From an uncultured Collinsella sp. (GTDB lineage Bacteria > Actinomycetota > Coriobacteriia > Coriobacteriales > Coriobacteriaceae): a DNA stretch of 30,906 nt. The position numbers were made by a program, and so were the translations under genes. The DNA is taken from positions 1-30,906 of the forward strand of contig USFU01000004.1 in NCBI GenBank assembly GCA_900554135.1, in the 5' to 3' direction. Of the stretch, positions 8,467 to 29,040 are shown piece after piece. Every line of letters begins with the position of its first letter. The stretch's first letter is position 1. The notes under the pieces are model-generated. The model saw nothing but the letters and a program-made list of their open reading frames with translations. It did no database searches and was not told the origin of the DNA.

Positions 8467-8478
8467 TGTTGCGCAACA
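8467..8478 (+). promoter_or_regulatory. TGTTGCGCAACA palindrome, site 1
   Basis: Perfect 12-bp palindrome 86 bp before the start at 8564. A -10-like TATGGT lies at 8501-8506, 22 bp downstream. It is one of seven such sites in the window, all in front of zinc-ribbon, kinase or FHA genes. Its position near -40 suits an activator or a -35-overlapping repressor. Confidence 0.75.
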
Positions 8479-8504
8479 AGTTTGCGCACTGAGCGGTGAA
8501 TATG

Positions 8505-8533
8505 GTCGTGCGGGCCCCAAAGGTCCGCACGAC
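8505..8533 (+). terminator. 12-bp hairpin in the leader of the zinc-ribbon membrane gene
   Basis: GTCGTGCGGGCC (8505-8516) pairs with GGTCCGCACGAC (8522-8533), with one G-T pair and a 5-base loop, followed by TTGTTGTTT. It could end transcription of the 7875-8408 gene, or act as a leader attenuator for 8564. If the -10 at 8501-8506 is real, the RNA would begin inside the hairpin, so one of the two calls may be wrong. Confidence 0.55.
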
Positions 8534-8563
8534 TTGTTGTTTGACCCCAAGGAGGTACCCGAT

Positions 8564-9427
8564 ATGTTCTGTCCCGGTTGTGGCGCCAAGATCGACGACG
8601 GCGCTCGTTTCTGCCCTGTTTGCGGCCAACAGATCCAGGCGGCGACCGCTGCCCCGGCTCAGCCCGCCCCCGCGGCTCAGCCCGTACCTGCCGCTCAGCC
8701 CCAGCCCGGCCCCGCCTTTGCCGCGGCGCCTGCCATGCATGCGGCTGCCCCCGCCTCTGCCGTGCATCCGGCCCTGTCCATCGCCCGCATCATCCCTTGC
8801 GCTCTTGCGGTGGTCGCGATCGTCCTCTCCTTTATGCCGTGGTTTAGCATCTCGCCCACGGTGGTGCAGGCATCGAGCTACGCGAGCCAGGGTGCCAATT
8901 TCCTAAGCCAACTTGCCGGCCAGAACACCGACTATTCGTCGAGCCTGGGTTTTGACGAGAGCTACAACGTCTGGAGCCTGGGCAAGGCCGGCGAGGTCGC
9001 CGTTACCTACCAGAGCATGTACGACTCGGCGTCCGACCTCGCCAGCTCGCTGAGCAGCTCCTACTACGATGACTATTCCGACTCGGGCCACGGTCGTGCC
9101 GTGAGCATCGCTAATCCCAACTACGGCAAGGTTTCCTCCGGCGGTGTCTCCTTTATCTCGATGGCCGTTACCGCCTTTTGGGCCCTCGGCATGCTCGCCT
9201 CGATCGCCGGCATCGTGCTCTACCTCACCCAGGGCCTCAAGGTCGTGCTTCCCGCTGGCTGTGGCCTCATGGTGCTCTCGGTGCTGGCCTTTGAGCTGCT
9301 GTACGCCAACATGATGAGTGCTATTGGTTCTGCGGCGATCACCCCCATCTTTACGGCGCTGTTTGCCATTGCCGCCGCCGCGCTCACCTTTGTGCTGCGC
9401 GAGCAGACTGTTCCGTCGGCTCACTAG
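8564..9427 (+). CDS. Zinc-ribbon protein with four transmembrane helices
   Basis: 287 residues. The N-terminal zinc ribbon has Cys3, Cys6, Cys17 and Cys20 (MFCPGCGAK, FCPVCG). A Pro/Ala/Gln linker follows, then a transmembrane helix (RIIPCALAVVAIVLSFMPWF), a large Ser/Tyr/Asp-rich loop of about 100 residues that is probably outside the cell, and three more helices close to the C-terminus. The start at 8564 has AAGGAGG eight bases upstream. The protein at 23746-24648 has the same plan, including an aromatic P-W at the end of the first helix, so the two are paralogues. No enzymatic motif is visible. Palindrome site 1 lies upstream and a terminator follows, so it is probably a single-gene unit. 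Confidence 0.85.
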   Translation: MFCPGCGAKIDDGARFCPVCGQQIQAATAAPAQPAPAAQPVPAAQPQPGPAFAAAPAMHAAAPASAVHPALSIARIIPCALAVVAIVLSFMPWFSISPTVVQASSYASQGANFLSQLAGQNTDYSSSLGFDESYNVWSLGKAGEVAVTYQSMYDSASDLASSLSSSYYDDYSDSGHGRAVSIANPNYGKVSSGGVSFISMAVTAFWALGMLASIAGIVLYLTQGLKVVLPAGCGLMVLSVLAFELLYANMMSAIGSAAITPIFTALFAIAAAALTFVLREQTVPSAH

Positions 9428-9464
9428 AAAACCGGCGCTCAATACGACCGATTCGTGACCCATG

Positions 9465-9500
9465 GCGGCCGAGGACAACATCCCCGGCCGCTTTTCTTTT
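9465..9500 (+). terminator. Rho-independent terminator
   Basis: GCGGCCG (9465-9471) pairs with CGGCCGC (9485-9491) and is followed by TTTTCTTTTT. It ends the 8564-9427 gene. Confidence 0.85.
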
Positions 9501-9554
9501 TCGTCTTTACCCTCGCTCAGCAGGCAAAACAAAAAAATTTGCGATGAGAGGCAA

Positions 9555-9566
9555 TGTTGCGCAACA
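9555..9566 (+). promoter_or_regulatory. TGTTGCGCAACA palindrome, site 2
   Basis: Perfect palindrome 58 bp before the kinase start at 9625, followed by ACTTTTTG, as at sites 4 and 6 (ACTTT). The -10 is unclear; CATGGT at 9586-9591 (19 bp) and TATTGG at 9591-9596 are candidates. Confidence 0.75.
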
Positions 9567-9624
9567 ACTTTTTGATTTTTGCCCTCATGGTATTGGTAGC
9601 AAAGAAAGGCAGGTGCTTACCAAG

Positions 9625-10701
9625 ATGGATCAGACGACCGATAAGAAGAACGTCGCGGCGGCCCCGATCGACGCCAAGGTCGACATGGTTGCCAGGCTCG
9701 CCGGCGTCGACGGGCTCAAGCTCGTCTCGAGCGCGGCGGGCGGCACGCAGGTCTTTGTCGGTTCCTGCACGGCTGACGGGCTGCGTGGCACCTCGTGCTC
9801 GCTCAAGCTCATCCGCGGCGACATCGATCACCTGCGTCGCCAGGGCGACTTCTTCTGTCGCGTCTCGGACACGCAGGCCGATGCCGGCGGTACCCTCACG
9901 CCCTCCTCGCATGGCTTGGCGCGCGTGCTCTTCCACGAGCTCGTCGCCCTGCCCGGGGATGACGCCGTGTTGGCCGTGGTGACCGTCATGGTTCCGGGCG
10001 TGTCGTTTGCCGACGTGGTGCGCACCTGCGCCACGGGCGTGCGCACCCTCTCGTTTGCGCAGTCGCTTTTGCTCGTGTCCTCGTGCTTTAAGGCGCTTGC
10101 CCAGGCACAGGCCGCCTTTGGCGGGACGTTTGTCCATCAGGACCTTAAGCCCTCCAACATCGTGTTCGAGAGCGACCCCTTTGATCTGGCGCCCGACCTT
10201 TTGGGGGATATCCCCCGGGCCGCCCTCATCGATCTGGACTTTTCGTTTTTGGCCGAGGAGGGGGCGTATCGCGCCCGCCCGCATGGAACGCCGGGCTATC
10301 TGGCACCCGAGCTGCTGCTGGGGGAGGCCGATGGGGCACGCTACGCTGTGCCCGCGTCCGATGTGTTCTCGCTGGGCGTCCTTGCCCACGAGGCGCTCTG
10401 CGGCAGCCTGCCGTACCTGCCGGGTGCACCCGACGTCGGTGGCTCCGGCAGCGCGTGGCGGGATTTCCTCGGGGCTTGCCGAGACACGGGCGCCGAAGCC
10501 ATTGCGGTGGATGAGGGCCTGCCGGCGGACGTGCGCGCCGCCATCGCGGCGTGCCTGGCCAGCGACCCCGACGCTCGTCCAAAGGCGGCTCAGATGGCCC
10601 GCGTGTTCGACGACCTAGCTCGCCGCCACGTGCAGCTTAAGGGCGACTTTATTGGCGATCGGCACGTGATGGATGTGGTGACGCCCGTCACGCTGCTGTA
10701 A
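9625..10701 (+). CDS. Soluble Ser/Thr kinase-like protein with altered HRD and DFG motifs
   Basis: 358 residues, a kinase fold with no membrane helix and no extra domain. Lys61 (CSLKLI) fits the ATP-binding lysine. The catalytic loop reads HQDLKPSNIVF: Asp173, Lys175 and Asn178 are kept but the HRD arginine is Gln172. DFG is replaced by DLD (203-205). The APE motif is at 227-229 (YLAPEL). The glycine loop is poorly recognisable (AAGGTQVFVG). These changes suggest a kinase that does not need activation-loop phosphorylation, or one of reduced activity; the key metal and base residues are present, so it is not clearly a pseudokinase. The start at 9625 is favoured over a GTG at 9613 on spacing from AGAAAGGCAGG. 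It has its own palindrome and lies before the FHA-PP2C-kinase operon. Confidence 0.83.
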   Translation: MDQTTDKKNVAAAPIDAKVDMVARLAGVDGLKLVSSAAGGTQVFVGSCTADGLRGTSCSLKLIRGDIDHLRRQGDFFCRVSDTQADAGGTLTPSSHGLARVLFHELVALPGDDAVLAVVTVMVPGVSFADVVRTCATGVRTLSFAQSLLLVSSCFKALAQAQAAFGGTFVHQDLKPSNIVFESDPFDLAPDLLGDIPRAALIDLDFSFLAEEGAYRARPHGTPGYLAPELLLGEADGARYAVPASDVFSLGVLAHEALCGSLPYLPGAPDVGGSGSAWRDFLGACRDTGAEAIAVDEGLPADVRAAIAACLASDPDARPKAAQMARVFDDLARRHVQLKGDFIGDRHVMDVVTPVTLL

Positions 10702-10702
10702 T

Positions 10703-10720
10703 GCCGCCCGCACCGGCGGC
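10703..10720 (+). terminator. Weak hairpin after the soluble kinase
   Basis: GCCGCC (10703-10708) pairs with GGCGGC (10715-10720). No T-run follows, so it is only a possible terminator. Confidence 0.3.
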
Positions 10721-10749
10721 GATGTTGAGTTACTGGACTGTTCCCGAGG

Positions 10750-10761
10750 TGTTGCGCAACA
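10750..10761 (+). promoter_or_regulatory. TGTTGCGCAACA palindrome, site 3
   Basis: Perfect palindrome 60 bp before the start at 10822. TAAAGT at 10783-10788 is a -10-like hexamer 21 bp downstream. This site would control the whole operon from 10822 to 20970. Confidence 0.75.
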
Positions 10762-10821
10762 GCGCGGGAATGCGGTGGCCCCTAAAGTTTGGGGTACCGG
10801 GGAGTTAGGAAAGGGGGCCTC

Positions 10822-11823
10822 ATGGCGAGCTCCTCTCAGGTTTGCGATTGCGTTCACGAGCATGGTTGGGACAGTGCGTTCTACCGTTTTGCAGAGACCA
10901 TCAGAGACCTGACGTGCGGCGGCTGCAACCACAAGCACATCTACGCGCTCGTGGGCACCCGTGGCAGGTATATCAACCACAGCAACCCGGTCGTTCGTAA
11001 GCGTACGGCCGCGGCACTGTCCCGCCTGATGCATTCGAGCCGCTATGCAGCCGATATGCAGCAGGGCTATGCCGACGACAGCTCGGTGTTCTCCAAGGCC
11101 GCGACTTCGTTGATCGAGATGCTGCACGAGACGACCAAACTGGACGATGCGGAGCTGTTTGACTACGCGCTCCACACCTCGTGGCCCGAGCTGCTGCGCG
11201 GACTGGAAAGCGAGCGTCGCGCCGGCCGCGAGGTCGATCCGCTGCGCATGGCCTGCGAGTCGCGCGAGGTGGTGCGCTGGGGCGAGCAACAGGCCGCTTG
11301 CGATCGTGCCCCGCTTGCCGAGCTCTTCGCTGCCTGCTTTCGCACCATGGCCTTTGGCTGCCTGGACGATCGCTTCGCCCGCACGCTTTGTTCTCGTACG
11401 CCTGCGGAGTCCGATGGCTCGCCGGCGGCGTGCGGCGAGCGCGTGCCCGAGGGCGCTTGCCTGGTGCGCACCACGGTCGGAGACGAACCGTGTATCTCGG
11501 GCGTGTGGTGCGTGGATGCCGACCGGCCCTTTTCGATCGGGCGCTTTAGCAGCTGCGACGCGATCGAGGCCGACCCGGTGGTCTCGCGTCTGCACTGTCG
11601 TGTGTTCATGCTCGACGGCACCTGGTTTTTGGAGGATGGCGGAAGCACTCACGGCACACGCGTCTTGCGCGGTGCGGATGATGCCCTTTCCTGCGTTTTC
11701 GACAGCGGGGGAGAGAAGGGCCCCCGGGCCTTTCCGCTCGAATTCGGCGACCGCATTGTGCTCGCCGGCCGAATTACCTATTGGTTTTGCGCGCGCGACG
11801 CGCATGTTCTGACGATTGGTTAG
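10822..11823 (+). CDS. FHA-domain protein, first gene of the phospho-signalling operon
   Basis: 333 residues, soluble. The FHA domain (about 236-322) carries SRLH (255-258) and GSTHGT (274-279), where His replaces the usual Asn of GSTNGT. The N-terminal 200 residues are mainly helical, with a Cys/His-rich patch near residues 8-39 ([15 protein letters not shown]) that could bind a metal, and resemble no family I can name. The general plan, a helical N-terminus plus C-terminal FHA, is shared with 3916-4878. The start at 10822 follows AAAGGGGG. The next gene starts four bases after this stop, so translation is probably coupled. Confidence 0.85.
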
Positions 11824-11827
11824 CCAA

Positions 11828-13300
11828 ATGGAAAAACGAGTTATTCAGCAGCGTGACGGTTCTATGGCACTCGGCTACGTGGTCGCCGACCAGCGTCAGC
11901 TCGACAAGCGTCTCTATGAAGCTGTAACCGGCGGCGTCGTGCCCTACCTGCTGCCCGGCGCGCTTATGCGCTACCCCGATGGCGTGCTCGAGATGCGCTA
12001 TCGCATTGCCGGCGAGACCTTGGAGCAGCGTCTGGCGCGTCCCTTTGACGGTGCCGAGACCTGTGAGCTGCTCGATAGCATCTCCAGCGCGCTTGACGCT
12101 TTGGTTGCAGGCCAGATGCCGCTTATGAACCTGCGCTTTGCCGCCGACGAGGTGGTTATGGACGCCGCCGGCACCGGATGCCGCTTTGTGTTTTTGCCCA
12201 TGACCGGCATCAAGCCCAACCTGGACGGTGCCCGCGTCTTCTTTGAGTCGGTCGCCGCCGCGGTCAAGCCCGCCGACGATATTGCCCAGAACGCGCTGAC
12301 GTCGCTGAGCTCTTTCTTTAAGAAGTCCGGCCCCTTCGACATCTTGGGTTTCTCGCGCCATCTGAAGCAGGTGAGCGTGAGCGCGATGCTCATGGATGCC
12401 GGCACCACCGTGCTCGACGATGGCGATGGCGATGACCACGGCACCACGGTGCTCGATAGCGGCGATGACCACGGCACGACGGTGCTCGATGATGGCGAGG
12501 ACCTGGACGTGTCTGCCCCCGGCCCCGTGCTGGGTACAGTCGTTCTTTCCGATTTGGAAGACGAGCCGATCGCCGCTACCGAACCTGCGCCTGCGCCCGC
12601 GCCCGAGCCGCAGCCTGCCCCGGAGCCTGAGCCTGCACCTGCGCCCGCGCCTGAGCCGGAGCCCGAGCCCGAGCCGGAACCGGAGCCCGAGCCCGAATCC
12701 GAGCCGGCGCCTGAGGACGAGGACGACCTGGCCGACGCGCCCATCGCCCAGTCCCGCCCGGATCGCACTGGCGTGCTCAACCCGATCGACTTTAAGGTCG
12801 CCGAGGGTTACGAGTCCCTGTTCTCCCAGGATACGGTCGAGCGCCATGGCTCCCATGCGAGCGACGCCAAGGCGCCTGCGCACGCCGCCCACGCTTCCAA
12901 GCCTGAGCCCGCGCCTGAGCCTGAGCCCAAGCCCGAGCCCGCATCTGCGCCCGCCCCCAAGCCCGAGCCGGCCCCCGCGCCCGCAGCTCCCGAGCGCCAC
13001 CTGCGCTTCTACCTCACGCGCATTGCCACCGGCGAGCGCTTTGAGGTCCGCGGCCGTCGCTTTGTGGTTGGCAAGTCCAAGCACAGCTCGTTTATGGTCA
13101 AGGGCTCCACGACGGTTTCGCGCAGCCACGCGATCTTCGTTACCGACGGTGCTACCTGCACCATCGAGGACGACAACTCGCGCAACGGCACCTTCGTCAA
13201 CAACGAGCGCATCGATCCGGGCTTTCCGGTTGCACTCGTCGACGGCGACACCGTGCGCATGAGTGACGAGAACTTTGCATTCGAGGTCCAGCCCGCCTAA
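11828..13300 (+). CDS. FHA protein with DUF6382-like N-terminus and Pro/Glu linker
   Basis: 490 residues, soluble. Residues 1-185 resemble the DUF6382 region found before FHA domains in Gram-positive bacteria (resemblance from memory). Residues 192-245 carry [21 protein letters not shown] and GTVVLSD, four near-copies of one threonine motif. A Pro/Ala/Glu-rich linker follows (about 255-300, and again 355-385), then a C-terminal FHA domain (about 392-490) with SRSHA and NSRNGT. The threonine copies fit a pT-x-x-D pattern that FHA domains can bind, so the protein may be both substrate and reader. There is no clear ribosome binding site; the start is four bases after the previous stop, which suggests coupled translation. 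Confidence 0.87.
12401..12560 (+). repeat. Coding repeat of the TTVLD motif
   Basis: Three copies of GTTVLD plus one degenerate copy (GTVVLSD) are encoded in about 150 bases of the FHA gene, separated by Asp/Gly/His-rich linkers. The spacers differ in length, so this looks like selected motif copies and not simple slippage. Confidence 0.8.
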
Positions 13301-13342
13301 GGGCGTGCGACCCACGTTGAGATATTCGAGAAAGGAGCGCAG

Positions 13343-14230: not shown

Positions 14231-14233
14231 CCC

Positions 14234-15982: not shown

Positions 15983-15994
15983 GGAGGGGCGAAC

Positions 15995-16900
15995 ATGGAA
16001 AACGTTTACTTTTACGTAGCGATCGCCGCGTTTGTACTCGCGGCCGTGCTCGCCGTCGCCGCGGTGGTTGTGTTTGTGAAGATGGATGTCATCAACGCCA
16101 TCCGCTTCCTCCAGGGCAAGCGCGTGCCTACGTCTGGCGAGGGTACGCGCCGCCGTACGACGCGCGGCTCGCGCGGTGCCGGTGCTAAGAAGTCCGGCAA
16201 CCCCGCCCGCTCCGTGCTGGGTGGCCCCGAGGGCGACGACCGCGTGACCGACATTGCGCATGAGGGCCCCGAGGGCGACGACAACCTGACCACGGTGGTC
16301 GCGCCTGTCAGCGACGAGCCCGCATCGGCCCGTCACGCCAAGGCGCACGCCGCCACGGTGGAGAAGGACGTCCGCGACGAGAATGACGACGAGGGCTTCG
16401 CTGGCAGCGAGACCCCGACCGAGGTGCTGACCGAGGACGATCTTGACACCGAGCGTCCGACCGGCGTGCTCGTAGAGGACGAGGAAGATTCCGAGCGCCC
16501 GACCGGCGTTTTGGTTGAGGACGAAGAGGATTCCGAGCGACCGACCGGCGTCCTTACCGAGGACGAAGAGGATTCCGAACGTCCGACGGGTGTCCTGGTC
16601 GAGGACGACGAAGAGTCCGAGCGTTCTACGGGCTTGCTCGTGGAGGAGGACGAGGAGTCCGAGCGCGAGACGGGCCTGCTCGACGAGACCGACGAGGACT
16701 CCGAGCAGGAGACCGGTCTGCTCGACGAGGGCGCCGAGGCGTCCGAATCCGAGACTGACGTACTCAGCAGCGGCGATGTTTATGAAAACATCGGTGCCGA
16801 TGGTGTTGCTCAACACGAGGATGACGGATTCCGCTTCATACTCAAACAGAATGTGATCGTAGTTCATACCGACGAGTCTCTCGATCGGGTTTGCAACTAG
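15995..16900 (+). CDS. Membrane protein with tandem Thr/acidic 14-residue repeats
   Basis: 301 residues. A single transmembrane helix lies at 6-28 with basic residues after it, so the rest is likely cytosolic (N-out, C-in). Residues 45-70 are Arg/Gly/Lys-rich. Residues about 139-264 are built of nine consecutive 14-residue units of the type ERPTGVLVEDEEDS, the last degenerate. Every unit keeps a Thr followed by [GED]-[VL]-L and then acidic residues. No enzyme domain is seen. Acidic, Thr-bearing repeats next to a kinase, a PP2C and FHA proteins suggest a scaffold that is phosphorylated at many sites and recruits FHA domains; this is inference. It follows AAGGAGG, 12 bases after the kinase stop. 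Confidence 0.85.
   Translation: MENVYFYVAIAAFVLAAVLAVAAVVVFVKMDVINAIRFLQGKRVPTSGEGTRRRTTRGSRGAGAKKSGNPARSVLGGPEGDDRVTDIAHEGPEGDDNLTTVVAPVSDEPASARHAKAHAATVEKDVRDENDDEGFAGSETPTEVLTEDDLDTERPTGVLVEDEEDSERPTGVLVEDEEDSERPTGVLTEDEEDSERPTGVLVEDDEESERSTGLLVEEDEESERETGLLDETDEDSEQETGLLDEGAEASESETDVLSSGDVYENIGADGVAQHEDDGFRFILKQNVIVVHTDESLDRVCN
16409..16786 (+). repeat. Tandem 42-bp coding repeats, about nine copies
   Basis: Nine in-frame 42-bp units encode the 14-residue Thr/acidic repeat. The central units are nearly identical at the protein level but use different synonymous codons, so they have been kept by selection on the protein and are not a recent slippage. Confidence 0.88.
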
Positions 16901-16917
16901 GGAAGGAAAATCGAACG

Positions 16918-19900
16918 ATGTCTGTGTTTGATAAACTCAAGGCGTATTCACGTAAGCCTGCAGCCGTGATCCTCGCCACCGTGATGGCCACCTCGACCAT
17001 CCCCACCACCCCGATCGCCCAGGCCGTGACCGCTGCGTATGCGGAGAGCACGACGGCGCAGCCGGCGAAGGGTGCCGAGACGAAATCTGGCCATCATTCT
17101 TCCGCTGCAGCTGAGGTTTTTCGGGATTACCCCGCTATCCGCTTTATCTACGATTCATATGCAACGGATGGTCAAAAAACCGTTGACTATTTCCTTAGCA
17201 AGTCCGAGGCGGCCGAGACGGCAAAGAAAACAATTCAGGAAGCAATTCTTAGTGGCAAGAGTGCCTATAGCACCGAGATTCTGCATGCCGCAATTGATGA
17301 CGCCTTCAATAATCACATTCCCGAAGGCCGGATTGTTGCCAGCAAAGATGACGTTTTAGTTGATTACACGAGCATCAAGATTGAGGATGTTCAGGTTGAT
17401 ACCGTAAAGCTGCTCAGCGCTGATACCGGATTTGCCGTTGATTCCGCCGATGGCGGCTGGAAGCTCACCGCTCCTGAGAAAGACCTTGCCAGCGCGCAGA
17501 TTGGTATGGACATTAAGTCCGTTAAGTTTTCGTACAACTTTACGTATAAATACACGACCAAGAGCGATGAGCAGGAGCCTAGCAATCCGGGTACCGGTGG
17601 CGACACGGGCTCAGGCTCTGAGGAAAATAGCGGAGCAGACGCTTCGAGCCAGGCCATTACTAATGAAAACACCACCGGCTCGGTGTTCGCTACTGGTGAG
17701 GCCAAGGGCAACGTGCTCACGGCTGAACAGAAGGATTTAAACGGACTTCGTGTTGATGGCTATCTGTTCAGCGAGGACTATTGGCGATTCGTGGGAGCAA
17801 ATCTTCCCAGCGTTAAGGCTGATCCTGTTACGCTTACGTATGGTGCTAAAGACAATCCCGAGGCCACGATCGCTGATGTCGATGGTGCCCATTCTGGGCA
17901 GCTGAACGCTACGTTCGAAAATGGCAAGAAGACCACCGAGAACGATTATTACAAGGCCGAGCTGGTTAATGAAGATGGTGCTTGGAAGGTAAAGTTCACC
18001 CCCAAGAAGGTCTTCTCTGCTGCTGAAAACCCGGACGGCGTGAGCGTTAACGTTAAATGGGCTTACCCTGATGGCACTGCTATCGATGGCGTCCAGACTC
18101 CTGTGACGGTCAGCGCAATCAATAAGTGCCCGATTGACAAACTGTCGCTGCCCGGTGACAAGGATGGTAAATACGCCTATCGTATCAAGGACGCGCAACA
18201 GAAGAAGATTTTGAAGGACGCTAATGACGCCGTTAAGCAGGCGGTTAAGGCCATTGACGGAAAAGAGCCGTCCGAGAACTACTACTCTTCCGTTGAGCTT
18301 GATGTTGACGCTAAGGGCGCAGCGAATAGCAGTACTGCTCTCACCTTCACCGTCAATCCAGACGAGAAGGCTGTGGCCGCATACGCGAACTTTAATGTAA
18401 CGGATGTTCCTACCGCGAATATCGATGCTGTTGCAAGTGTTGGTTGGGATAAGACCGATTTGGTCGTCAAGTCTGATAATGGCGGCTCTAATTCAAAGCT
18501 TTCCTATGAGGATTATTCTAAAAATGGTGCCTGGCTTAATGGCAACGGAACGAAGCATGACGGTAAGGTGACGGCTAGTTGGACAGACTATGCACTTTCC
18601 GATGAGGTTCCGGCTGAGATGTCCAAGCTCGGCAACGACCTCGAGATGAACATGAAGGAGGGCGTCTCTGAGAACAACCAGATGTATGCTCTCGATAGCG
18701 ACGGAGTCGTTACGCTCGTTACCGGTATCTGCTACCGTCGTGATACGTGGGCTCCCGAGGTCAAATCTGCGGGCGTTGTGAATGCTGAAAAGAAGAGCGC
18801 CGCCCGTACCAAATCAATTACTGAGGAGCTCGAGGCTAACCGCACTTACGTCACAAAGAATCTTCAGGTCGATGTAACTATTGTCGATGGCTACAACAAT
18901 TCGGATAAGTCTGGCCTTAAAGATGACTCCGTAAAGATGAAGTATAAATTTGGGACGAATGACCGAAGCGATACGGGAAACGATAAGGAGGTCACGCCAG
19001 ATTCTTCCGATAAGGGCACCTTTGTTTTTGATTTGTCCAAGTACGGCGCGAATCAGCGTATCAACTCCAACAATATGAAGGTCAGCGCATACGATAACGC
19101 CGGCAACCATATCGATGAAGTTGGCGTTCTCGAGGCGGCGGACACGCCGATGAAGTATCTCGAGCTTGTTCAGAATGCTGAGGCTCCTACGGTTACCGCG
19201 GCTTTTGACAACAACAACGTTCAGCGCGAAGCAAACGGTCGCGGATACTACAACGCTAACCGTACTTTCACTGTCTCGGTCACCGACCCCTTCTTTAGTT
19301 ATGTTCAGCGCTATGATTCGGATCAGGTTATCGCGACGCTTGAAGACGGCGGCGAAACGACCACAATTACCCCTGGCATGCTCACTCGTTCGAACGGGGA
19401 CACGTGGACCTATTCCTACACCTTCGGTGCTAAGGGCGATGCGGACTGCAAGGTTTCTGCGGTTAACTACGCAAATCTTGCTGGCACCACTGCTGCCCAA
19501 ACCTTCTCTGGCGACACCTTCACCATCGATAAGACCGCTCCTAAGCTGAATGTGTCTTGGAACACTGAGGCTGCTCAGAATGGTAAGTATTACAACGCTG
19601 CTCGTACGGCTACCATTACGGTTGAGGAGCACAACTTCGATCCGAACCTGTTCAAGATCGAGGCTCCGGTCTCTGCCGGCAACGGTGACGAGGCTACTCC
19701 TGCCCAGATCGGTGGCTGGTCCAGCAACGGCGATACCCACACCGCTACAGTGACCTTCCCGGGTCAGGGCGTCTACACGCTCTCCGTCTCCGGTGAGGAC
19801 CTGGCTTCCAACAAGTCCGAGTCCTACACCTCGCCTGAGTTCGTGATCGACACCATCAAGCCCAAGATCGACATCCAGAATGTCGTCAACCGCACGGCCT

Positions 19901-20970
19901 ACGCCGGTGAGGTCGCCCCGACCGCTGCCGTTCACGACACCAACCTTGCCGATGGCACCTCCATCGAGGTTTCCAAGATCAGCTACCCGCTGTCCAAGGA
20001 CGATCCGAACCCCTATGCGGGCGCCGCGATCAACACCTCGGCTACCGACAAGTCCGTGAGCTACCTCAACCCGGCCAAGACCAAGGGCAACGATGGCGTC
20101 TATACCCTGACCGTTCAGGCTATCGACCTGGCCGGTAACACCGAGTCCGAGGCCGTCACCTGGTCGGTCAACCGCTTTGGTTCGACCTACGTCATCTCCG
20201 ATAACACCGGCAAGATGCTCGACCAGTACCTCAAGAGCTCCAAGACCACCGATGTTAAGGTGACCGAGATCAACCCGTCCGGCCTTGATGACAACAAGAC
20301 CTCCGTCGAGCTGACCCGCGACACCAAAAACACCACGCTCAAGAGCGGTGACAACTACACCACCGATTCCGACACGTCGAGCGGTTGGAGCGAGTACAAC
20401 TACACCGTCAGCAAGTCCAACTACGACAAGGACGGCGCGTATCGCGTGCTGTTCCACAGCGAGGACGCCGCTGGCAACTCCTCCGAGAACACCATGGAGG
20501 GCAAGAACGCCAAGAAGTCCGGCGCTGCTGCCGAGATCAACTTCGCCGTTGACGACACCGCGCCCATCGCTTCTTTCGTCGACCTTGCCTCCAACGGTAA
20601 GTACGAGGAGTCCTCGCACAAGGCCAAGGTGAGCTTCGAGGACAACCTCAAGCTTTCGAAGGCTCAGATCAAGGTAAACGGCAAGACCGTGGCCACCTTC
20701 ACGGCCGACCAGCTCGAGAAGAGCCCGATCCGCGAGTTCACGCTCGACGGTAGCTCCTCCAAGCAGGACGTCACCGTTGTCGCTTGGGACGCCGCGGGCA
20801 ACAAGTCCAAGGAGCTTAAGGCTACGGGCGTGCTCGTCACCAACGACTCCTTCGTTCTGTGGATGAACAACCTGCCGCTTATGGTTGGCACCATCGTCGC
20901 GATCGTCGTCGTCGCTGGCGGTATCTACATGGTCGTCGCCAAGAAGCGCAAGGAGAACGAGGAGAAGTAA
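16918..20970 (+). CDS. Large Ig-like surface protein, membrane-anchored
   Basis: 1350 residues. A signal peptide covers about 1-42 (basic start, hydrophobic core, AYA-E cleavage site likely). The body contains several bacterial Ig-like modules marked by D-x-A-G-N or D-L-A-[GS]-N loops at about 724, 960, 1070, 1183 and 1291, and by IDKTAP, IDTIKP and VDDTAP linkers near 870, 977 and 1211. A membrane helix at about 1320-1341 ends in a basic tail (KKRKENEEK). No LPxTG motif is seen, so it stays in the membrane and is not sortase-linked. Codon use is unlike the neighbours from about 17050 to 19560 (many A/T-ending codons) and host-like after that. It is the last gene of the operon, 17 bases after the repeat protein, and ends at a terminator. 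A role as adhesin or cell-surface sensor fits. Confidence 0.85.
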   Translation: MSVFDKLKAYSRKPAAVILATVMATSTIPTTPIAQAVTAAYAESTTAQPAKGAETKSGHHSSAAAEVFRDYPAIRFIYDSYATDGQKTVDYFLSKSEAAETAKKTIQEAILSGKSAYSTEILHAAIDDAFNNHIPEGRIVASKDDVLVDYTSIKIEDVQVDTVKLLSADTGFAVDSADGGWKLTAPEKDLASAQIGMDIKSVKFSYNFTYKYTTKSDEQEPSNPGTGGDTGSGSEENSGADASSQAITNENTTGSVFATGEAKGNVLTAEQKDLNGLRVDGYLFSEDYWRFVGANLPSVKADPVTLTYGAKDNPEATIADVDGAHSGQLNATFENGKKTTENDYYKAELVNEDGAWKVKFTPKKVFSAAENPDGVSVNVKWAYPDGTAIDGVQTPVTVSAINKCPIDKLSLPGDKDGKYAYRIKDAQQKKILKDANDAVKQAVKAIDGKEPSENYYSSVELDVDAKGAANSSTALTFTVNPDEKAVAAYANFNVTDVPTANIDAVASVGWDKTDLVVKSDNGGSNSKLSYEDYSKNGAWLNGNGTKHDGKVTASWTDYALSDEVPAEMSKLGNDLEMNMKEGVSENNQMYALDSDGVVTLVTGICYRRDTWAPEVKSAGVVNAEKKSAARTKSITEELEANRTYVTKNLQVDVTIVDGYNNSDKSGLKDDSVKMKYKFGTNDRSDTGNDKEVTPDSSDKGTFVFDLSKYGANQRINSNNMKVSAYDNAGNHIDEVGVLEAADTPMKYLELVQNAEAPTVTAAFDNNNVQREANGRGYYNANRTFTVSVTDPFFSYVQRYDSDQVIATLEDGGETTTITPGMLTRSNGDTWTYSYTFGAKGDADCKVSAVNYANLAGTTAAQTFSGDTFTIDKTAPKLNVSWNTEAAQNGKYYNAARTATITVEEHNFDPNLFKIEAPVSAGNGDEATPAQIGGWSSNGDTHTATVTFPGQGVYTLSVSGEDLASNKSESYTSPEFVIDTIKPKIDIQNVVNRTAYAGEVAPTAAVHDTNLADGTSIEVSKISYPLSKDDPNPYAGAAINTSATDKSVSYLNPAKTKGNDGVYTLTVQAIDLAGNTESEAVTWSVNRFGSTYVISDNTGKMLDQYLKSSKTTDVKVTEINPSGLDDNKTSVELTRDTKNTTLKSGDNYTTDSDTSSGWSEYNYTVSKSNYDKDGAYRVLFHSEDAAGNSSENTMEGKNAKKSGAAAEINFAVDDTAPIASFVDLASNGKYEESSHKAKVSFEDNLKLSKAQIKVNGKTVATFTADQLEKSPIREFTLDGSSSKQDVTVVAWDAAGNKSKELKATGVLVTNDSFVLWMNNLPLMVGTIVAIVVVAGGIYMVVAKKRKENEEK

Positions 20971-21007
20971 GCTCTTCGCAAGACGCTTGTGCATCTGTGA
21001 GCTTTAC

Positions 21008-21044
21008 GGCGCCTTGCCCCACTGCTGGGCGGGGCGCCATTTTT
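21008..21044 (+). terminator. Rho-independent terminator of the FHA-PP2C-kinase operon
   Basis: GGCGCC (21008-21013) pairs with GGCGCC (21033-21038), extended inside by GCCC with GGGC, and is followed by A and a run of five T (21040-21044). Confidence 0.85.
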
Positions 21045-21063
21045 GTTAGGAAAGGATTGATCG

Positions 21064-22632: not shown

Positions 22633-22659
22633 GGCGCCTGGCGCCGGAAAGGACCCATC

Positions 22660-23565: not shown

Positions 23566-23603
23566 CAGATAACGGTCTGTACCAGGTAAAACGTTGTAGA
23601 CGA

Positions 23604-23635
23604 GCGACGGCAGGTAAAAAACTTGCCGTCGCTTT
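23604..23635 (+). terminator. Rho-independent terminator
   Basis: GCGACGGCA (23604-23612) pairs with TGCCGTCGC (23624-23632), with further weak pairs inside and TTT after it. It separates the zinc-ribbon FHA gene from palindrome site 4, which begins four bases later. Confidence 0.8.
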
Positions 23636-23638
23636 CCA

Positions 23639-23650
23639 TGTTGCGCAACA
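23639..23650 (+). promoter_or_regulatory. TGTTGCGCAACA palindrome, site 4
   Basis: Perfect palindrome 95 bp before the start at 23746, followed by ACTTTCGA. GATTCT at 23673-23678 is a weak -10-like hexamer 22 bp downstream. Confidence 0.75.
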
Positions 23651-23745
23651 ACTTTCGAGTTTTTGGACGGATGATTCTAACTGTCAAAGGTGAACGAGCG
23701 GACGCGGTATCGAGCCCGGCCGCTCCCTTAAGAAAGGGGAATGAA

Positions 23746-24648
23746 ATGTTCTGTCCTCATTGTGGAGCCCAGCAGCCCGATGGCGCCGTCTTCTGCGGTA
23801 ACTGCGGTCAGTCTATGGTCGGTGCTTCTTCTGCGCCGCAGGCAGCTCCTGCCCGTCAGGCTCCGGCTCCGCAGCAGCCTTTTGCCGCGCCCGCACCTGC
23901 ACCCTCCGCGCATCACGGGCTTGGCAGCTCCGGTTCCAACTTCCAGGGTACACTGTCGGCGGCGACAGGCTTTGGCAAGCGTTCCCTCGCCATGCTTGGC
24001 GGCGCCGTGGCATCGTTCGTCTGCATGTTCCAGCCGTGGGTCGCGCTGCCGTTTGCCGACAAGGGCCTCGACTATGCCCTGCAGCAGGCTGCGAGCGGCT
24101 CGAGCACCGCTATGATCGAGCAGCAGCTGGGCGGCGCCTTCAAGGCATTCATCAACACCTCGTTCGATATGCCGCACGTCTTTAGCCTTTCCGGTAGCCT
24201 GCGTGGTATCGCATCGGCGGCCAATACCTATATTACGCAGATGTCGAGCTATGCCGATCTTCCGGCACTGCAGCAGGCCCAGAGCGCCGTGGGCTCCATT
24301 AATCTGGCGGCCAACGTCCTTACCATCTTCTTTGTGCTGTGGATTGCCTGCCTGGCTGCACTGATTGCCGGCGTTGTCCTCAAGTTTGTCAAGAAGAACG
24401 ACGTCGTTCTGATTGCCGCTTTTGGCGCCACTGCCGCCATTTCGCTGGTCTGCGTGATCGCGTCCTTTGTCGTTAATGGTCAGATCGAGAGCAACCTGGT
24501 TTCGGCTTTTACCTCGATGGGTAGCAGCAGCACGGCCGGAATCATCGCGTCCATCAAGCCGTTTATCCAGCCTGCATTCGGCGCCATCCTCACGCTCATC
24601 TTTTCGGCTGCCGGCCTGGTGTGCTCCTTTGTCCTCAAGGAGGACTAA
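23746..24648 (+). CDS. Zinc-ribbon protein with four transmembrane helices, paralogue of 8564-9427
   Basis: 300 residues. Cys3, Cys6, Cys17 and Cys20 form the ribbon (MFCPHCGAQ, FCGNCG). After a Pro/Ala/Gln linker come a helix ending in FQPWVAL, a loop of about 110 residues that is probably outside the cell, and three helices (near NVLTIFFVLWIACLAALIAG, VVLIAAFGATAAISLVCVIA and AFGAILTLIFSAAGLVCSFV). Plan and length match the protein at 8564-9427. The start at 23746 follows AAAGGGGA. Upstream in-frame codons are passed over because they would run through the palindrome and lack a ribosome binding site. Function unknown. Confidence 0.85.
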   Translation: MFCPHCGAQQPDGAVFCGNCGQSMVGASSAPQAAPARQAPAPQQPFAAPAPAPSAHHGLGSSGSNFQGTLSAATGFGKRSLAMLGGAVASFVCMFQPWVALPFADKGLDYALQQAASGSSTAMIEQQLGGAFKAFINTSFDMPHVFSLSGSLRGIASAANTYITQMSSYADLPALQQAQSAVGSINLAANVLTIFFVLWIACLAALIAGVVLKFVKKNDVVLIAAFGATAAISLVCVIASFVVNGQIESNLVSAFTSMGSSSTAGIIASIKPFIQPAFGAILTLIFSAAGLVCSFVLKED

Positions 24649-24708
24649 TTTCGTCGATACGCCTGCTGGCGGGCTAGACTCGGCCCCGTTTACAGGAGAC
24701 TATCGTAG

Positions 24709-24736
24709 GCCCTGCGGATCTTCCGCGGGGCCTTTT
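24709..24736 (+). terminator. Rho-independent terminator
   Basis: GGCCCTGCGG (24709-24718) pairs with CCGCGGGGCC (24723-24732) with one T-G pair, followed by TTTT. Confidence 0.83.
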
Positions 24737-24752
24737 GCTATGGCGTGGCAAT

Positions 24753-24764
24753 TGTTGCGCAACG
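24753..24764 (+). promoter_or_regulatory. TGTTGCGCAACG palindrome, site 5
   Basis: Eleven of 12 bases match the consensus. It lies 58 bp before the start at 24823, and TACACT at 24784-24789 is a good -10 hexamer 19 bp downstream. Confidence 0.72.
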
Positions 24765-24822
24765 TTGTGGGCGGAGCGCGGGTTACACTCTGAGTAACGG
24801 AATTGTTGTAAGGGAGAACCTT

Positions 24823-26037
24823 ATGTTTTGCACTAAATGCGGCTCGTACGTGCCCGACGGCCAGCACTTCTGCACCAGCTGCGGTGCCCCTATGGAGGAG
24901 TTTGGGCCCGCTGATGCTGCTCCGGCACAGCCGACGTACCAGCAGCCTGGTCAGACGCAGCAGGGCTATGGGCAGCCTGCTTCTGTAACGGACGCCAGCG
25001 ACTTGCCGCCCTATATGCCGCCGGTCGACGTGCCGGGTGTCTACGACATGGGTGCAGGCGGTCCTGGTCCGCAGGGCCCCAAAAAGAACGGTAAGAAGGC
25101 TGCACTGATCACCGTTGGTGTGCTGGTGGCTATCCTTGCGGGCGGTGGCGCCGGCTATTACTTTGGCGTGTATCGCCCGCAACAGGCCGAGATTGAGCGC
25201 ATCGAAAAGAAGAAGGAAGAAGAGGCCGTTAAGCACTCCAAGCACCCGGTGCGCATCACGGCGACCGGCATGCAGTGGGATACCGATACCGGCGCCACCA
25301 AGCTGCCGGTGCACGTGACGGGAACCGACGTTGACGGCAAGGACGTGGATACGGTCTTTTATGTCGACAGCGAGGGCAACGGTATCAAGCTCATGCAGGG
25401 CAACTACAGCCTTGCAGTGGCCGCGTCGCCCTTGGGTGCCGATGGCGAGATTTGGGACGTACCCAACGTTTCGGTGAGCATTAAGCTGGGCGACGCGCTC
25501 AAGAAGGGCGAGAAGCTCGACCTGCGCGAGAATGCCAAGTTTGAGCTCGGCGATCCGATCAATGCCGTGGACGTCGAGGCTGGCGAGATCACCATGGCGC
25601 AGAATTACGCGCGCCAGGGTGGCTGCGACGACAAGGACGAGGCCGACCGTCTGGCGGGCTTGGCTTCTTCGGCGCGTAACGGTGCGGTCGCGAGCTATAA
25701 CGCGGCCGTCTCGGAGGCGAGCCGCAAGAGCCGCACCTACGACGGCGACGTGTTTACGTTCGAAGTTCCCGAGGACTGGGAGAGCGACTGGGACGTAAAG
25801 ACCTCACAGGGTACGTACAGCGGCGTCAAGAACGGTTTGTGGGTCGATTACAAGATCGTCCACGATGGCTACACGGTGGGAACGCTGATGATCTCCAACC
25901 ACTTCAGCTCGGGGTTTAACACGATCGGGAAGACGAACAACGTGGGTAAATCGACCAATCTGTGGCTCGGATCGTACGATTCGCTTTCGGGCGACTCCGA
26001 TTGGGAGTACATCATCGATTCGATCTACATTAAATAG
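24823..26037 (+). CDS. Zinc-ribbon membrane protein with outer beta-rich domain
   Basis: 404 residues. Ribbon Cys3, Cys6, Cys17 and Cys20 (MFCTKCGS, FCTSCG); Pro/Gln/Tyr linker to about 88; transmembrane helix at about 93-117; a charged Glu/Lys segment; then an outer region of about 270 residues. The last 100 residues start with YDGDVFTFEVPEDW, typical of a small beta-rich domain seen in secreted Gram-positive proteins, though I cannot name the family with confidence. The start at 24823 follows AAGGGAG. Single-gene unit: palindrome site 5 upstream and a terminator downstream. Confidence 0.82.
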   Translation: MFCTKCGSYVPDGQHFCTSCGAPMEEFGPADAAPAQPTYQQPGQTQQGYGQPASVTDASDLPPYMPPVDVPGVYDMGAGGPGPQGPKKNGKKAALITVGVLVAILAGGGAGYYFGVYRPQQAEIERIEKKKEEEAVKHSKHPVRITATGMQWDTDTGATKLPVHVTGTDVDGKDVDTVFYVDSEGNGIKLMQGNYSLAVAASPLGADGEIWDVPNVSVSIKLGDALKKGEKLDLRENAKFELGDPINAVDVEAGEITMAQNYARQGGCDDKDEADRLAGLASSARNGAVASYNAAVSEASRKSRTYDGDVFTFEVPEDWESDWDVKTSQGTYSGVKNGLWVDYKIVHDGYTVGTLMISNHFSSGFNTIGKTNNVGKSTNLWLGSYDSLSGDSDWEYIIDSIYIK

Positions 26038-26051
26038 TTTCGCTTACAAGA

Positions 26052-26090
26052 AAGTGCCCCGTTTCCCTGGTGGAAACGGGGCACTTCTTT
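26052..26090. terminator. Bidirectional terminator between convergent genes
   Basis: A perfect 15-bp stem: AAGTGCCCCGTTTCC (26052-26066) with GGAAACGGGGCACTT (26072-26086), loop CTGGT, followed by CTTT. It lies between the stop codons of 24823-26037 and the minus-strand gene 26115-28478 and probably serves both, better for the plus strand. Confidence 0.88.
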
Positions 26091-26114
26091 GTGCAATGAG
26101 AGTGGCGCTCGGCG

Positions 26115-28478
26115 CTACTCGTCGACGTCGGTGAACTCGGTGGGCGGGACGGAGTCCGTGGAGTCGTCGTAGCTATCGTCGTAGTCGCTGGAATCGTCGT
26201 AGCTGTCGTCGTAGTCGGAGTCGTAGTCATCGTCGGAGTCGTCGTAGCTGGACGACTTGCTGGAGCTGCTCGACTTGCTCGACTTTTTGCTGGAGCTCGA
26301 CTTACTGCTGGACGAGTCGGTCGACTTGCTGCTGTTTGCATCAGCATCGGTATCGGTGCCGCTGATCTTGGTGGTGAGCGTCATCAAGGTCTGCTCGACG
26401 GTATCGACCGTGTTGTTGAGGTTGAGCTTGGAGGTATCGATGGCGCCCTCCGGGGCAGAGGCGTCCTGGTCCTCCAGGTTGTCGCTGTAGCCCTTGATGA
26501 GGAAGGCGCTCTGGTAGTTGAAGTCGTCGCCGTGGAGCTCGCCCTCGGCAGCCTTAAACTCAGTGCCGTCGTAGGTGAAATACTTGTACTCGGCATCGTC
26601 GTCAACGAGCACGGCCGTGTCGTCGGACATGAGCTGGGTCAGATAGACGTGATTGCTCGAGTCGCCGATCATGGTCTTAAAGGTTACAAAGACATAGCCG
26701 CCGTTGGACGCCTCCGGTGAGCCGCTGTAGAGATTGACGACCTTCTTGCCGTTGTAGCCCCACACGTCGAGGACGTAGTCGCCGTTCGAAAGGCGCGTCT
26801 TCTTGTTGAAGGACTTTGCCTTGGTCTTGGAGTGAACGGTCACGAGCTCCTCGAGGCCGTCGCCGTTAAAATCGACGAGCTGGGCAAACTGGACGCCGCT
26901 AATCTGGTAGTCGCTCGTGCCGGTCGAGACAAGCTCGGGCTCGCCATACTTCTTGATCAGGCTGTTGAGCTTGCTCTTGTAGGCGGTGCAGGCCGCCTTG
27001 TACGTCGCGTCGTCAATCGTGGCGGGCGCGGTGGTGTTCGTGGTGTCCTTGGACGTGTCGGTCTTCTTGTCGGACTTGCTGGGCTTGGAGCTGCTCGTGC
27101 TGTCGCTCGACGTGCTCGAGTCGTCCTTGGTCGTGGAGTCGTCCTTGCTGGCGTCGTCGCTGTTGGTGTCGTCCTTGGAGGTCGTGTCCGAGGAACTGCC
27201 GTTGTCCGTGCTGGTGGAGACGTCGTCGTCCTTCTCGGGGGTGTTGACGGTCACGCTCTCGGCAGGCTTCTCGGCGCTGGTGTCGTCCTTCTTGACCACG
27301 GTGGTGTTGAAGTTTTGGACCGTATTGCCCTTGGTGTCCTCGATCTTGCAGCTGTAGTCGCCGGGCTTGACCTTGCCAAAGTCACCGATCGTAAAGCCGT
27401 CGTCGCCCTTGACCTTGATCTTGTAGCTCTTGCCGCCGTTCTTGGGAGTAAGGGTCGCGGTGTAGCTGTGGATCACGCGGTCCTTCTTTTTGGGCAGGAC
27501 CTTGGTGTCGACCGTGCATACGACGGCGTCCTGACTGCCCGAGGTGATCTCGACGGCGTTGGCGTTGGGCGTGAGCAGCAGGATGGCTGCCACGGCGGCG
27601 CCGGCGGCGACCAGACCAAGGCCCGCGAAGACCGGCCAGCGGCGCTTCTTTTGCTGCGGCTGCTGGGGCATGGGCATCTGCGGTTGGGGCTGCGGCTGCG
27701 GAATAGGCGCCGCCTGCATGGTGGTGTCGGTCATCTGCTGCTGCGGCAGGTCGACGACGGTGGCGCCGGCCGTGGGTTGTGCCACACCGAGCGACTCCAT
27801 TGCCTCGGCGGTTGCCTGGGCATCCTCGTCGAACTCGGCGATGGTGGTGGGGTCGTCATTGACGTTGACGAGCGTAGTGGGGTCGTCGGCGACGGCCGCG
27901 GGCTCGGCTGCATCGTCGCCGGGGAAGGCGACGGCGACGGCTGCGTTGTCGTCGGTCTCGAAGATCTCGTTGGCCTCGGCGGCGTCAACGGGCGCGGCGT
28001 CGTCGATGACGACGGGCTCGGCGGTCGGCTCGGGGTCGGCTGCGGGCTGCGGCTCGGTGGTTTGCTCGTCCGAGGGCTCAACGGCATCGAGCGTGACGAC
28101 CGTCTCACCGGGGTCGGTCTGATCAGCTTGCGGCTCGGCGGTGTCTGTCGGGGCGTCCGGCTCCGGGTCAGCGGCGTCGAGGGTCACCACGGTCTCGCCG
28201 GGATCTGCATCGACAGCGTCCAGCGTGACGACCGTCTCGCCGGGGTCGGTGACGGTCTCGGGTGCAGGTGCAGGCTCGGACGTCGGCTCAACGGCATCGA
28301 GCGTAACAACGGTCTTGCCCGGATCAGCGGCGGGCGCCTCGGCGGGTGCAGGTTCGGCGGCCTGTGCCTCGGCGGGCGCCGGAGCCTGGGTTGCTGCCTT
28401 GGGCGCTACGGACGCTCCGCAATTGGTGCAAAAGCGCGCGTCGTCAGGCAGCTTCGTTCCGCATTGCGTGCAAAACAT
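26115..28478 (-). CDS. Zinc-ribbon membrane protein with TVVTLDA repeats and Ser/Asp/Tyr tail
   Basis: 787 residues. Ribbon Cys3, Cys6, Cys17 and Cys20 (MFCTQCGT, FCTNCG). Residues 52-133 hold four copies of DPG[EK]TVVTLDA; DDPTT occurs twice near 199 and 209; an acidic Pro/Glu/Asp region continues to about 250. A transmembrane helix lies at about 281-303. Outside, after a short beta-rich part, comes a long Ser/Thr/Asp/Lys low-complexity stalk, then a folded domain with DFNGDGLEEL, a calcium-loop-like D-x-N-x-D-G motif also seen in FG-GAP or dockerin-type loops. The last 70 residues are almost only Ser, Lys, Asp and Tyr. The cytosolic Thr repeats make it a likely kinase substrate. The start at 28478 follows AGAAGGGAG. 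Confidence 0.85.
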   Translation of the reverse strand: MFCTQCGTKLPDDARFCTNCGASVAPKAATQAPAPAEAQAAEPAPAEAPAADPGKTVVTLDAVEPTSEPAPAPETVTDPGETVVTLDAVDADPGETVVTLDAADPEPDAPTDTAEPQADQTDPGETVVTLDAVEPSDEQTTEPQPAADPEPTAEPVVIDDAAPVDAAEANEIFETDDNAAVAVAFPGDDAAEPAAVADDPTTLVNVNDDPTTIAEFDEDAQATAEAMESLGVAQPTAGATVVDLPQQQMTDTTMQAAPIPQPQPQPQMPMPQQPQQKKRRWPVFAGLGLVAAGAAVAAILLLTPNANAVEITSGSQDAVVCTVDTKVLPKKKDRVIHSYTATLTPKNGGKSYKIKVKGDDGFTIGDFGKVKPGDYSCKIEDTKGNTVQNFNTTVVKKDDTSAEKPAESVTVNTPEKDDDVSTSTDNGSSSDTTSKDDTNSDDASKDDSTTKDDSSTSSDSTSSSKPSKSDKKTDTSKDTTNTTAPATIDDATYKAACTAYKSKLNSLIKKYGEPELVSTGTSDYQISGVQFAQLVDFNGDGLEELVTVHSKTKAKSFNKKTRLSNGDYVLDVWGYNGKKVVNLYSGSPEASNGGYVFVTFKTMIGDSSNHVYLTQLMSDDTAVLVDDDAEYKYFTYDGTEFKAAEGELHGDDFNYQSAFLIKGYSDNLEDQDASAPEGAIDTSKLNLNNTVDTVEQTLMTLTTKISGTDTDADANSSKSTDSSSSKSSSSKKSSKSSSSSKSSSYDDSDDDYDSDYDDSYDDSSDYDDSYDDSTDSVPPTEFTDVDE
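26125..26330 (-). repeat. Low-complexity Ser/Asp/Tyr-coding tract
   Basis: This encodes a run of Ser/Lys followed by repeated SYDDS and DYDD units at the C-terminus of the minus-strand gene. Repeat number may vary between strains. Confidence 0.75.
28080..28325 (-). repeat. Four coding copies of the DPGETVVTLDA motif
   Basis: Four copies at residues 52-62, 78-88, 92-102 and 122-132 of the protein, nearly identical but unevenly spaced. Confidence 0.85.
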
Positions 28479-28546
28479 AAGGTGAGCTCCCTTCTTTTGA
28501 TGGTTCTTGCGTTCGAATCTATGGTACCTGCGGTATAGGACAAAGT

Positions 28547-28558
28547 TGTTGCGCAACA
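28547..28558 (-). promoter_or_regulatory. TGTTGCGCAACA palindrome, site 6 (minus-strand gene)
   Basis: Perfect palindrome 68 bp before the minus-strand start at 28478. Read on that strand it is followed by ACTTTG, and TACCAT (plus-strand 28521-28526) lies 20 bp downstream. It keeps the same geometry on the opposite strand, which supports a real promoter element. Confidence 0.78.
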
Positions 28559-28611
28559 GTTCGAAAAACCTTCGGACGACGCCAATAGTGGTGTTCATGT
28601 GTACAGATTTC

Positions 28612-28989
28612 GTCTCAATCTGTAACAACTGGACGGGATTTCATCCTCTACCTGTTACAGATCGAGATAGTTCTCCACCCAACACATCAAACATCTCAAT
28701 CTGTAACAGTATGGACCCGTTTTGCTCAGCAGATGTTACAGATTGAGATGTTGTCCGGAGGGGGATTCTTCGGTCTCGATCTGTAACATCTAGGCCGGGA
28801 ATCGACCTCTACTTGTTACAGATTTAGATGTTTTGGATGGGGCCGACAGTATGTCTCGATCTGTAACATCTGGACGAAGATTCAGCCTGCAGATGTTACA
28901 GATCGAGATGTTGTCCAAGGGGCTGATCGTATGTCTCGATCTGTAACGCTAAGACTCAGTTTTGACCCGTAACTGTTACGGATTGAGAC
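28612..28989. repeat. Array C: five 57-bp inverted-repeat units, 80/81-bp period
   Basis: Units at 28612-28668, 28693-28749, 28773-28829, 28853-28909 and 28933-28989; start-to-start steps are 81, 80, 80 and 80. Arms are 16 bp, centres 25 bp, spacers 23-24 bp, as in array A. The array lies between two divergent promoters (palindrome sites 6 and 7) and takes up most of the 664-bp gap between genes. Confidence 0.95.
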
Positions 28990-29028
28990 AAACCTGCTGC
29001 TGGCGGTGTGGAAACGACCGCTTGGAAT

Positions 29029-29040
29029 TGTTGCGCAACG
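29029..29040 (+). promoter_or_regulatory. TGTTGCGCAACG palindrome, site 7
   Basis: Eleven of 12 bases match. It lies 102 bp before the start at 29143; TATGCT at 29060-29065 is 19 bp downstream. It lies 40 bp beyond the last unit of array C. Confidence 0.72.

What the first reader, a model, noticed from the sequence alone, without database searches (positions are those of the whole stretch)
8467..29040. A 12-bp palindrome, TGTTGCGCAACA, marks seven promoters of one functional gene set
Sites at 8467, 9555, 10750, 23639, 24753, 28547 (minus) and 29029 precede starts by 58-103 bp. Five are perfect and two differ only in the last base. A -10-like hexamer begins 19-22 bp after nearly every site, also for the one on the opposite strand, placing the dyad centre near -40. 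I saw no copies inside genes. All target genes encode zinc-ribbon, kinase or FHA proteins. This looks like a dedicated regulon with a class II-type activator site or a -35-blocking repressor site. No DNA-binding regulator is encoded in the window, so the factor lies elsewhere.
Basis: partly seen in the sequence, partly recalled or inferred. Interest (0 to 1): 0.85.

Follow-up and report, generated by a model that had tools for sequence, protein, structure and literature searches.

The report
Shared promoter switch in Collinsella relatives
A short mirror-image DNA word sits at a fixed distance in front of a set of genes, many of them for zinc-ribbon proteins, in Collinsella and related gut bacteria, which suggests that one still unknown protein controls them together.

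Summary
The window is from a Collinsella; its own genome is not held. In 43 genomes of the genus the exact 12-mer occurs 101 times, in 34 genomes, against 2 control hits; 7 of 106 copies lie in called genes. The composite is concentrated in Coriobacteriales. Zinc-ribbon proteins are clearly enriched among targets (24 of 70 against 46 of 1110 nearby genes). Kinases, secreted proteins, BREX phage-defence operons, capsule genes and, in two genomes, type VII secretion also occur, but secreted proteins as a class are not enriched. Best reading: the site of one unidentified dimeric regulator, probably a class II-like activator. Activation is inferred from geometry alone.

The parts
8467..8478 (+). 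palindrome TGTTGCGCAACA before zinc-ribbon gene 8564-9427; -10 GAATAT at 8498-8503
9555..9566 (+). palindrome before protein-kinase gene 9625-10701; -10 CATGGT at 9586-9591
10750..10761 (+). palindrome before the FHA / FHA / PP2C / kinase run starting at 10822; -10 TAAAGT at 10783-10788 (offset 22, not 20)
23639..23650 (+). palindrome before zinc-ribbon gene 23746-24648; -10 GATGAT at 23670-23675
24753..24764 (+). TGTTGCGCAACG before zinc-ribbon gene 24823-26037; -10 TACACT at 24784-24789
28547..28558 (-). palindrome before zinc-ribbon gene 26115-28478 (minus); -10 TACCAT at 28526-28521 (offset 21)
29029..29040 (+). TGTTGCGCAACG before zinc-ribbon gene 29143-30501; -10 TATGCT at 29060-29065
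16804..16815 (+). possible eighth site TGTTGCTCAACA inside the end of CDS 15995-16900, before gene 16918-20970 (Ig-like domain); CATACT at 16837-16842 (offset 22)
   Evidence: the CT centre recurs at composite sites
7875..8408 (+). zinc-ribbon gene without a site here; a similar gene in G328 (L231) has one
   Evidence: similarity read by eye

Best explanation
TGTTG-N2-CAACA is the binding site of one dimeric transcription factor, not identified here, shared by many Coriobacteriales. It occupies the place of the -35 element, centred near -37.5 and separated by exactly 19 bp from a weak -10 (xAxxxT). A normal -35 hexamer cannot stand there, so the dimer most likely activates by contacting RNA polymerase at the -35 position (class II-like). 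Its targets are above all zinc-ribbon proteins, with Ser/Thr-kinase and FHA signalling proteins, some secreted surface proteins and, depending on the species, BREX defence, capsule and type VII secretion operons. Shown by computation: the site, its enrichment, the fixed spacing, the zinc-ribbon enrichment and the concentration in Coriobacteriales. Inferred: that a protein dimer binds it, that it activates, and that it is the same factor in all species.
For: Exact 12-mer: 101 copies in 34 of 43 genus genomes, control 2; 7 of 106 copies in called CDS, five of those seven in one orthologous gene. Offset profile: 38 of 118 non-redundant flanks have xAxxxT at +20; the other offsets from 5 to 49 have 1-10. 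Per site: 34 of 58 and 18 of 21 fit (6.1 and 2.3 expected). Strict composite: 71 matches in 28 of 43 genus genomes, control 0; 162 in 74 of 395 order genomes, control 5; 13 in the 273 phylum genomes not met in the order search, control 3. Targets: N-terminal double CxxC in 24 of 70 against 46 of 1110 called genes of the fetched loci; 29 of 70 Zn_Ribbon_1, 5 Pkinase, 3 SLH, 3 CAP; BrxA, BrxB, BrxC, CpsB/CapC and a NusG-like protein.
Against: No transcription start, binding or expression data. 24 of 58 non-redundant Collinsella sites fit the +20 rule in neither direction, and two window sites miss it by 1 and 2. The missing -35 is no independent test: with the palindrome at this offset its own letters allow at most 3 of 6 matches to TTGACA at 16-18 bp (seen: 5 of 116 with 3, none more). 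N-terminal hydrophobic segments are no commoner among targets (16 of 70) than among nearby genes (248 of 1110; crude test), so a surface programme is not shown. The regulator was not found. G024 and G030 have no composite match even with one mismatch, and G024 and G039, without exact sites, carry WXG100 genes.
Confidence: 0.6

Rival explanations
1. Repressor operator: the same dimeric factor binds over the -35 region and blocks RNA polymerase until a signal releases it.
For: Centre near -37.5 covers the -35 region, a usual place for operators; short 5-2-5 palindromes occur in repressor families (recalled).
Against: A repressor does not need a fixed spacing, yet one offset stands out sharply (38 of 118 against 1-10); with the palindrome there, no good -35 remains to drive the promoter alone (follows from the letters of the palindrome).
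Confidence: 0.28
2. Alternative sigma factor promoter: the palindrome is an unusual -35 element read directly by a sigma factor.
For: Fixed distance to the -10.
Against: Variants mostly touch the centre or an end base (listed rows by eye), as for a symmetric dimer; a 12-bp palindromic -35 is not known to me and the -10 TAnnnT is of the housekeeping kind (recalled).
Confidence: 0.06
3. Mobile or structural repeat, such as a REP-like or terminator hairpin, that happens to lie between genes.
For: It is palindromic and mostly outside called genes.
Against: Conservation stops at the 12-mer apart from A/T-rich flanks and the -10; one offset to a -10 core stands out.
Confidence: 0.02

Closest known systems
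Class II activator promoters (CRP/FNR type, site at -41.5; FadR-activated fabA)
   Same: A dimer site abuts or replaces the -35 element at a fixed spacing from the -10
   Different: Centre is near -37.5, the site is a compact 5-2-5 palindrome, and the regulator is unknown (comparison recalled, not from a call)
MarR-family operators with 5-2-5 symmetry
   Same: Half-sites of five bases separated by two
   Different: No MarR gene was tied to these sites; motif comparison is recalled
EmbR of mycobacteria (DNA-binding domain plus FHA, kinase controlled)
   Different: No HTH domain was found in the helical N-terminal part
BrxR/WYL regulators of BREX islands
   Same: Control of BREX operons through inverted repeats
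   Different: The BrxR box described is a pair of 11-bp repeats with a 5-bp spacer (PMC9122601, passages seen), and here BREX is one target among many

Membership tests
Class II activator-dependent promoter | site at a fixed spacing from the -10 | tested here: met
   38 of 118 flanks at offset 20, other offsets 1-10; 34 of 58 and 18 of 21 sites; 24 of 58 do not fit
Class II activator-dependent promoter | no consensus -35 element | tested here: met
   0 of 116 fit flanks with 4 or more of 6 matches to TTGACA at 16-18 bp; this follows from the letters of the palindrome at that place, so it is not independent evidence
Class II activator-dependent promoter | expression depends on the bound activator | not testable with these tools
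   needs reporter and binding assays
BrxR/WYL operator | 11-bp inverted repeats with 5-bp spacer | tested here: not met
   core is 5-2-5; BrxR box from PMC9122601
LytTR-regulated site | regulator gene under its own site | tested here: inconclusive
   in 3 of the 40 loci read (G304, G305, G306) a LytTR-type gene is first behind a site (Pfam for L337); 0 of 62 LytTR-like frames in 58 Collinsella loci have one within 260 bp, one mismatch allowed
EmbR-like FHA regulator encoded in the window | DNA-binding domain joined to FHA | tested here: inconclusive
   model has a helical N-terminal part; the matches listed span only 196-320, so that part is barely tested
MarR-family operator | binding by a MarR protein | not tested
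   only the 5-2-5 symmetry was seen

The most novel reading that the evidence does not exclude
One undescribed regulator of the Coriobacteriales runs a single signalling, surface and defence programme in these gut bacteria: through the composite promoter TGTTG-N2-CAACA-N19-TANNNT it turns on zinc-ribbon sensor-like proteins, Ser/Thr-kinase signalling, adhesins and S-layer proteins, capsule, type VII secretion and the BREX phage-defence system together.
Probability: 0.35. Interest if true: 0.75.

Novelty: new member of a known kind. Interest (0 to 1): 0.55.

Why it matters
My searches found no description of such a regulon in Coriobacteriales, which are common in the human gut (listings only, in one open-access library). 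A sharp promoter signature that predicts start site, spacing and a target list turns an open question, what controls their zinc-ribbon proteins, kinases and phage defence, into a direct experiment: pull down what binds one 40-bp fragment. If one factor links phage defence to surface and signalling genes, it would be an unusual order-wide joint programme.

Tried and rejected
Regulator search. Rrf2 gene: the palindrome lies about 190 bp before an Rrf2-like gene in many Collinsella (family read by eye), but in that direction the -10 does not fit; it fits the opposite strand, so autoregulation was dropped. Gene clusters near the sites were read by eye for HTH proteins (the clusters printed only). 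LytTR: lead from three loci, but 0 of 62 LytTR-like frames in 58 Collinsella loci have a site upstream. Counts per genome correlate weakly with site counts for LytTR (rho 0.33), GerE (rho 0.22) and genome size (rho 0.30), n = 43, so none is singled out. FHA protein 3916-4878 as an EmbR-like regulator: inconclusive (a weak 6ohj match at residues 38-125, E 0.65, is not significant). Type VII secretion as the core of the regulon: rejected, since WXG100 over the cut-off occurs in 4 of 43 genomes and two of these, G024 and G039, have no exact site. BrxR: rejected by box shape. Rfam on the window: 0 families. Literature: the 12-mer is in 1 paper, an enzyme-screening study seen only in the listing.

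Limits and dropped rows. In one search the gene-internal sites were left out except the L118 one, whose gene call scored low. In one search, 92 of the 106 exact copies had enough flank and unique sequence and collapsed to 58; the 21 sites of other genera come from regions of six genomes chosen for many copies. 87 of 125 promoter-fit flanks got a target, 38 none, and the 87 collapsed to 70; these include loci found with the composite or one-mismatch pattern and a few doubtful start codons. One search's figure for other genera includes 30 loci chosen by the composite, so one search is the fair count. Several listings were capped, while their count tables are whole. Gene calls are from my own simple caller and may miss genes. 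On rechecking, the -35 result proved not independent and secreted proteins not enriched, so I lowered the main odds from 0.65 to 0.6 and the bold reading from 0.4 to 0.35, and raised the repressor from 0.25 to 0.28.

Full report
What was checked. The seven copies are at the stated coordinates, five perfect and two with G as last base; 11 matches with up to two mismatches against 1.57 expected. Each lies 58-102 bp before a start codon. The first genes behind them are five zinc-ribbon proteins, one kinase and one FHA protein. TGTTG is the commonest half-site of perfect 5-2-5 palindromes in the window (6 sites, next 2). One near copy at 16804 is inside a gene but 102 bp before the start of a large gene with an Ig-like domain and may be an eighth site. 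Four zinc-ribbon, kinase or FHA genes of the window have no site near their start.

Where the window comes from. Among the close relatives of the window's PP2C protein, one that bears a name is a Collinsella (P0014, 95% identical). No whole genome is held for the window. Through L001 (Collinsella tanakaei ET30) I reached 43 genomes of its genus and 395 of its order.

Enrichment. In the genus the exact 12-mer occurs 101 times in 34 of 43 genomes; the same pattern read backwards occurs twice. With the window's five that makes 106 copies, of which 7 lie in called genes: five in one orthologous gene, one elsewhere, and one in a doubtful gene call. In the order 134 of 395 genomes have at least one copy, with 4-10 in ten genomes outside the genus.

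Geometry. Counting xAxxxT at every offset after the palindrome in 118 non-redundant flanks, both directions, gives 38 at offset 20 and 1-10 at the other offsets from 5 to 49. Per site, without selection on the -10, 34 of 58 Collinsella sites and 18 of 21 sites of other Coriobacteriales fit in at least one direction (6.1 and 2.3 expected from base composition). In the window five sites fit exactly, one is off by 1 and one by 2. If the -10 begins at -12, the dyad spans -43 to -32 with its centre at -37.5. It therefore occupies the -35 place; its letters allow at most 3 of 6 matches to TTGACA at 16-18 bp, and 5 of 116 flanks reach 3. A/T is preferred on the base before the palindrome (91% and 94% in the two fit sets, where the set of other genera is partly pre-selected).

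Core and breadth. With one mismatch allowed the composite gives 203 matches in 41 of 43 genus genomes against 7 control matches (sum). The strict form TGTTG-N2-CAACA-N19-TANNNT gives 71 matches in 28 of 43 genus genomes with control 0, 162 in 74 of 395 order genomes with control 5, and 13 in the 273 genomes of the phylum sample that were not met in the order search, control 3. That is 1.65 per genome in the genus, 0.26 in the rest of the order (91 in 352) and 0.05 in the rest of the phylum.

Targets. Of 125 promoter-fit flanks, 87 had a recognisable gene; these collapse to 70 proteins. An N-terminal double CxxC is seen in 24 of 70 targets against 46 of 1110 called genes of the fetched loci, targets included. 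By Pfam 29 of 70 match Zn_Ribbon_1, 5 Pkinase, 3 SLH and 3 CAP; single matches include subtilase, a surface lipoprotein family and CpsB/CapC (the first 25 of 62 families shown). N-terminal hydrophobic segments, a crude mark of secretion, are as common in targets (16 of 70) as in nearby genes (248 of 1110), so secretion as such is not enriched. BREX operons lie behind such sites in Collinsella and other genera (BrxA by Pfam in L248, L278, L319, L323 and L328; 63-355 nt from site to my called starts in the loci read), as do CpsB and a NusG-like gene. In C. tanakaei G001 a type VII secretion operon (WXG100, FHA-FtsK/SpoIIIE protein, LXG proteins) follows two sites, and in G037 the same WXG100 gene does, but WXG100 over the cut-off is found in only 4 of 43 genomes. 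G016 and G028, with one strict site each, keep it before a gene that is followed on the other strand by an FHA-like protein (FHA read by eye).

Mechanism. The fixed spacing argues for an activator that contacts polymerase at the -35 position; a repressor would not need it. Symmetric half-sites with a loose centre argue for a protein dimer rather than a sigma factor. This is inference; no expression data exist here. The factor was not identified. The best lead is a LytTR response regulator whose own gene follows a site in three loci, but the 62 LytTR-like frames checked in Collinsella loci lack such sites.

Verdict. A real, order-wide promoter class with an unknown regulator; not found in the literature searched (listings), and of a known general kind.

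Noticed in passing
window 1379-1675, 28612-28989, 30539-30756: Arrays of intergenic hairpins built from TGTTACAGATYGAGAY arms in alternating orientation with a period of about 80 bp: 24 arms (0.01 expected); no Rfam match.
   Followed up: partly
L117 8948 (minus strand); near-identical composite in 15 genus genomes listed: The site opposite an Rrf2-like gene fits the promoter rule on the other strand but no open reading frame was found there; about 100 nt on lies a hairpin beside a tRNA-like sequence (by eye), so a small RNA is possible.
   Followed up: partly
L278, L286, L288, L248, L319, L323, L328, L338: BREX operons of several Coriobacteriales start behind this promoter type (L286 and L288 by likeness to L278).
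   Followed up: partly
L086 480/496 and L183 1434/1469: Tandem copies of the palindrome 16 and 35 bp apart.
   Followed up: no
L118 9620, L178 6269: Single palindromes that fit the -10 rule in both directions, possible divergent promoters.
   Followed up: no
L125, L128, L147, L151, L169: The palindrome recurs inside one orthologous coding gene, probably kept by the protein sequence.
   Followed up: no
window 3916-4878: FHA protein with 244 relatives found and a helical N-terminal part of about 170 residues without a significant match in solved structures by sequence.
   Followed up: partly
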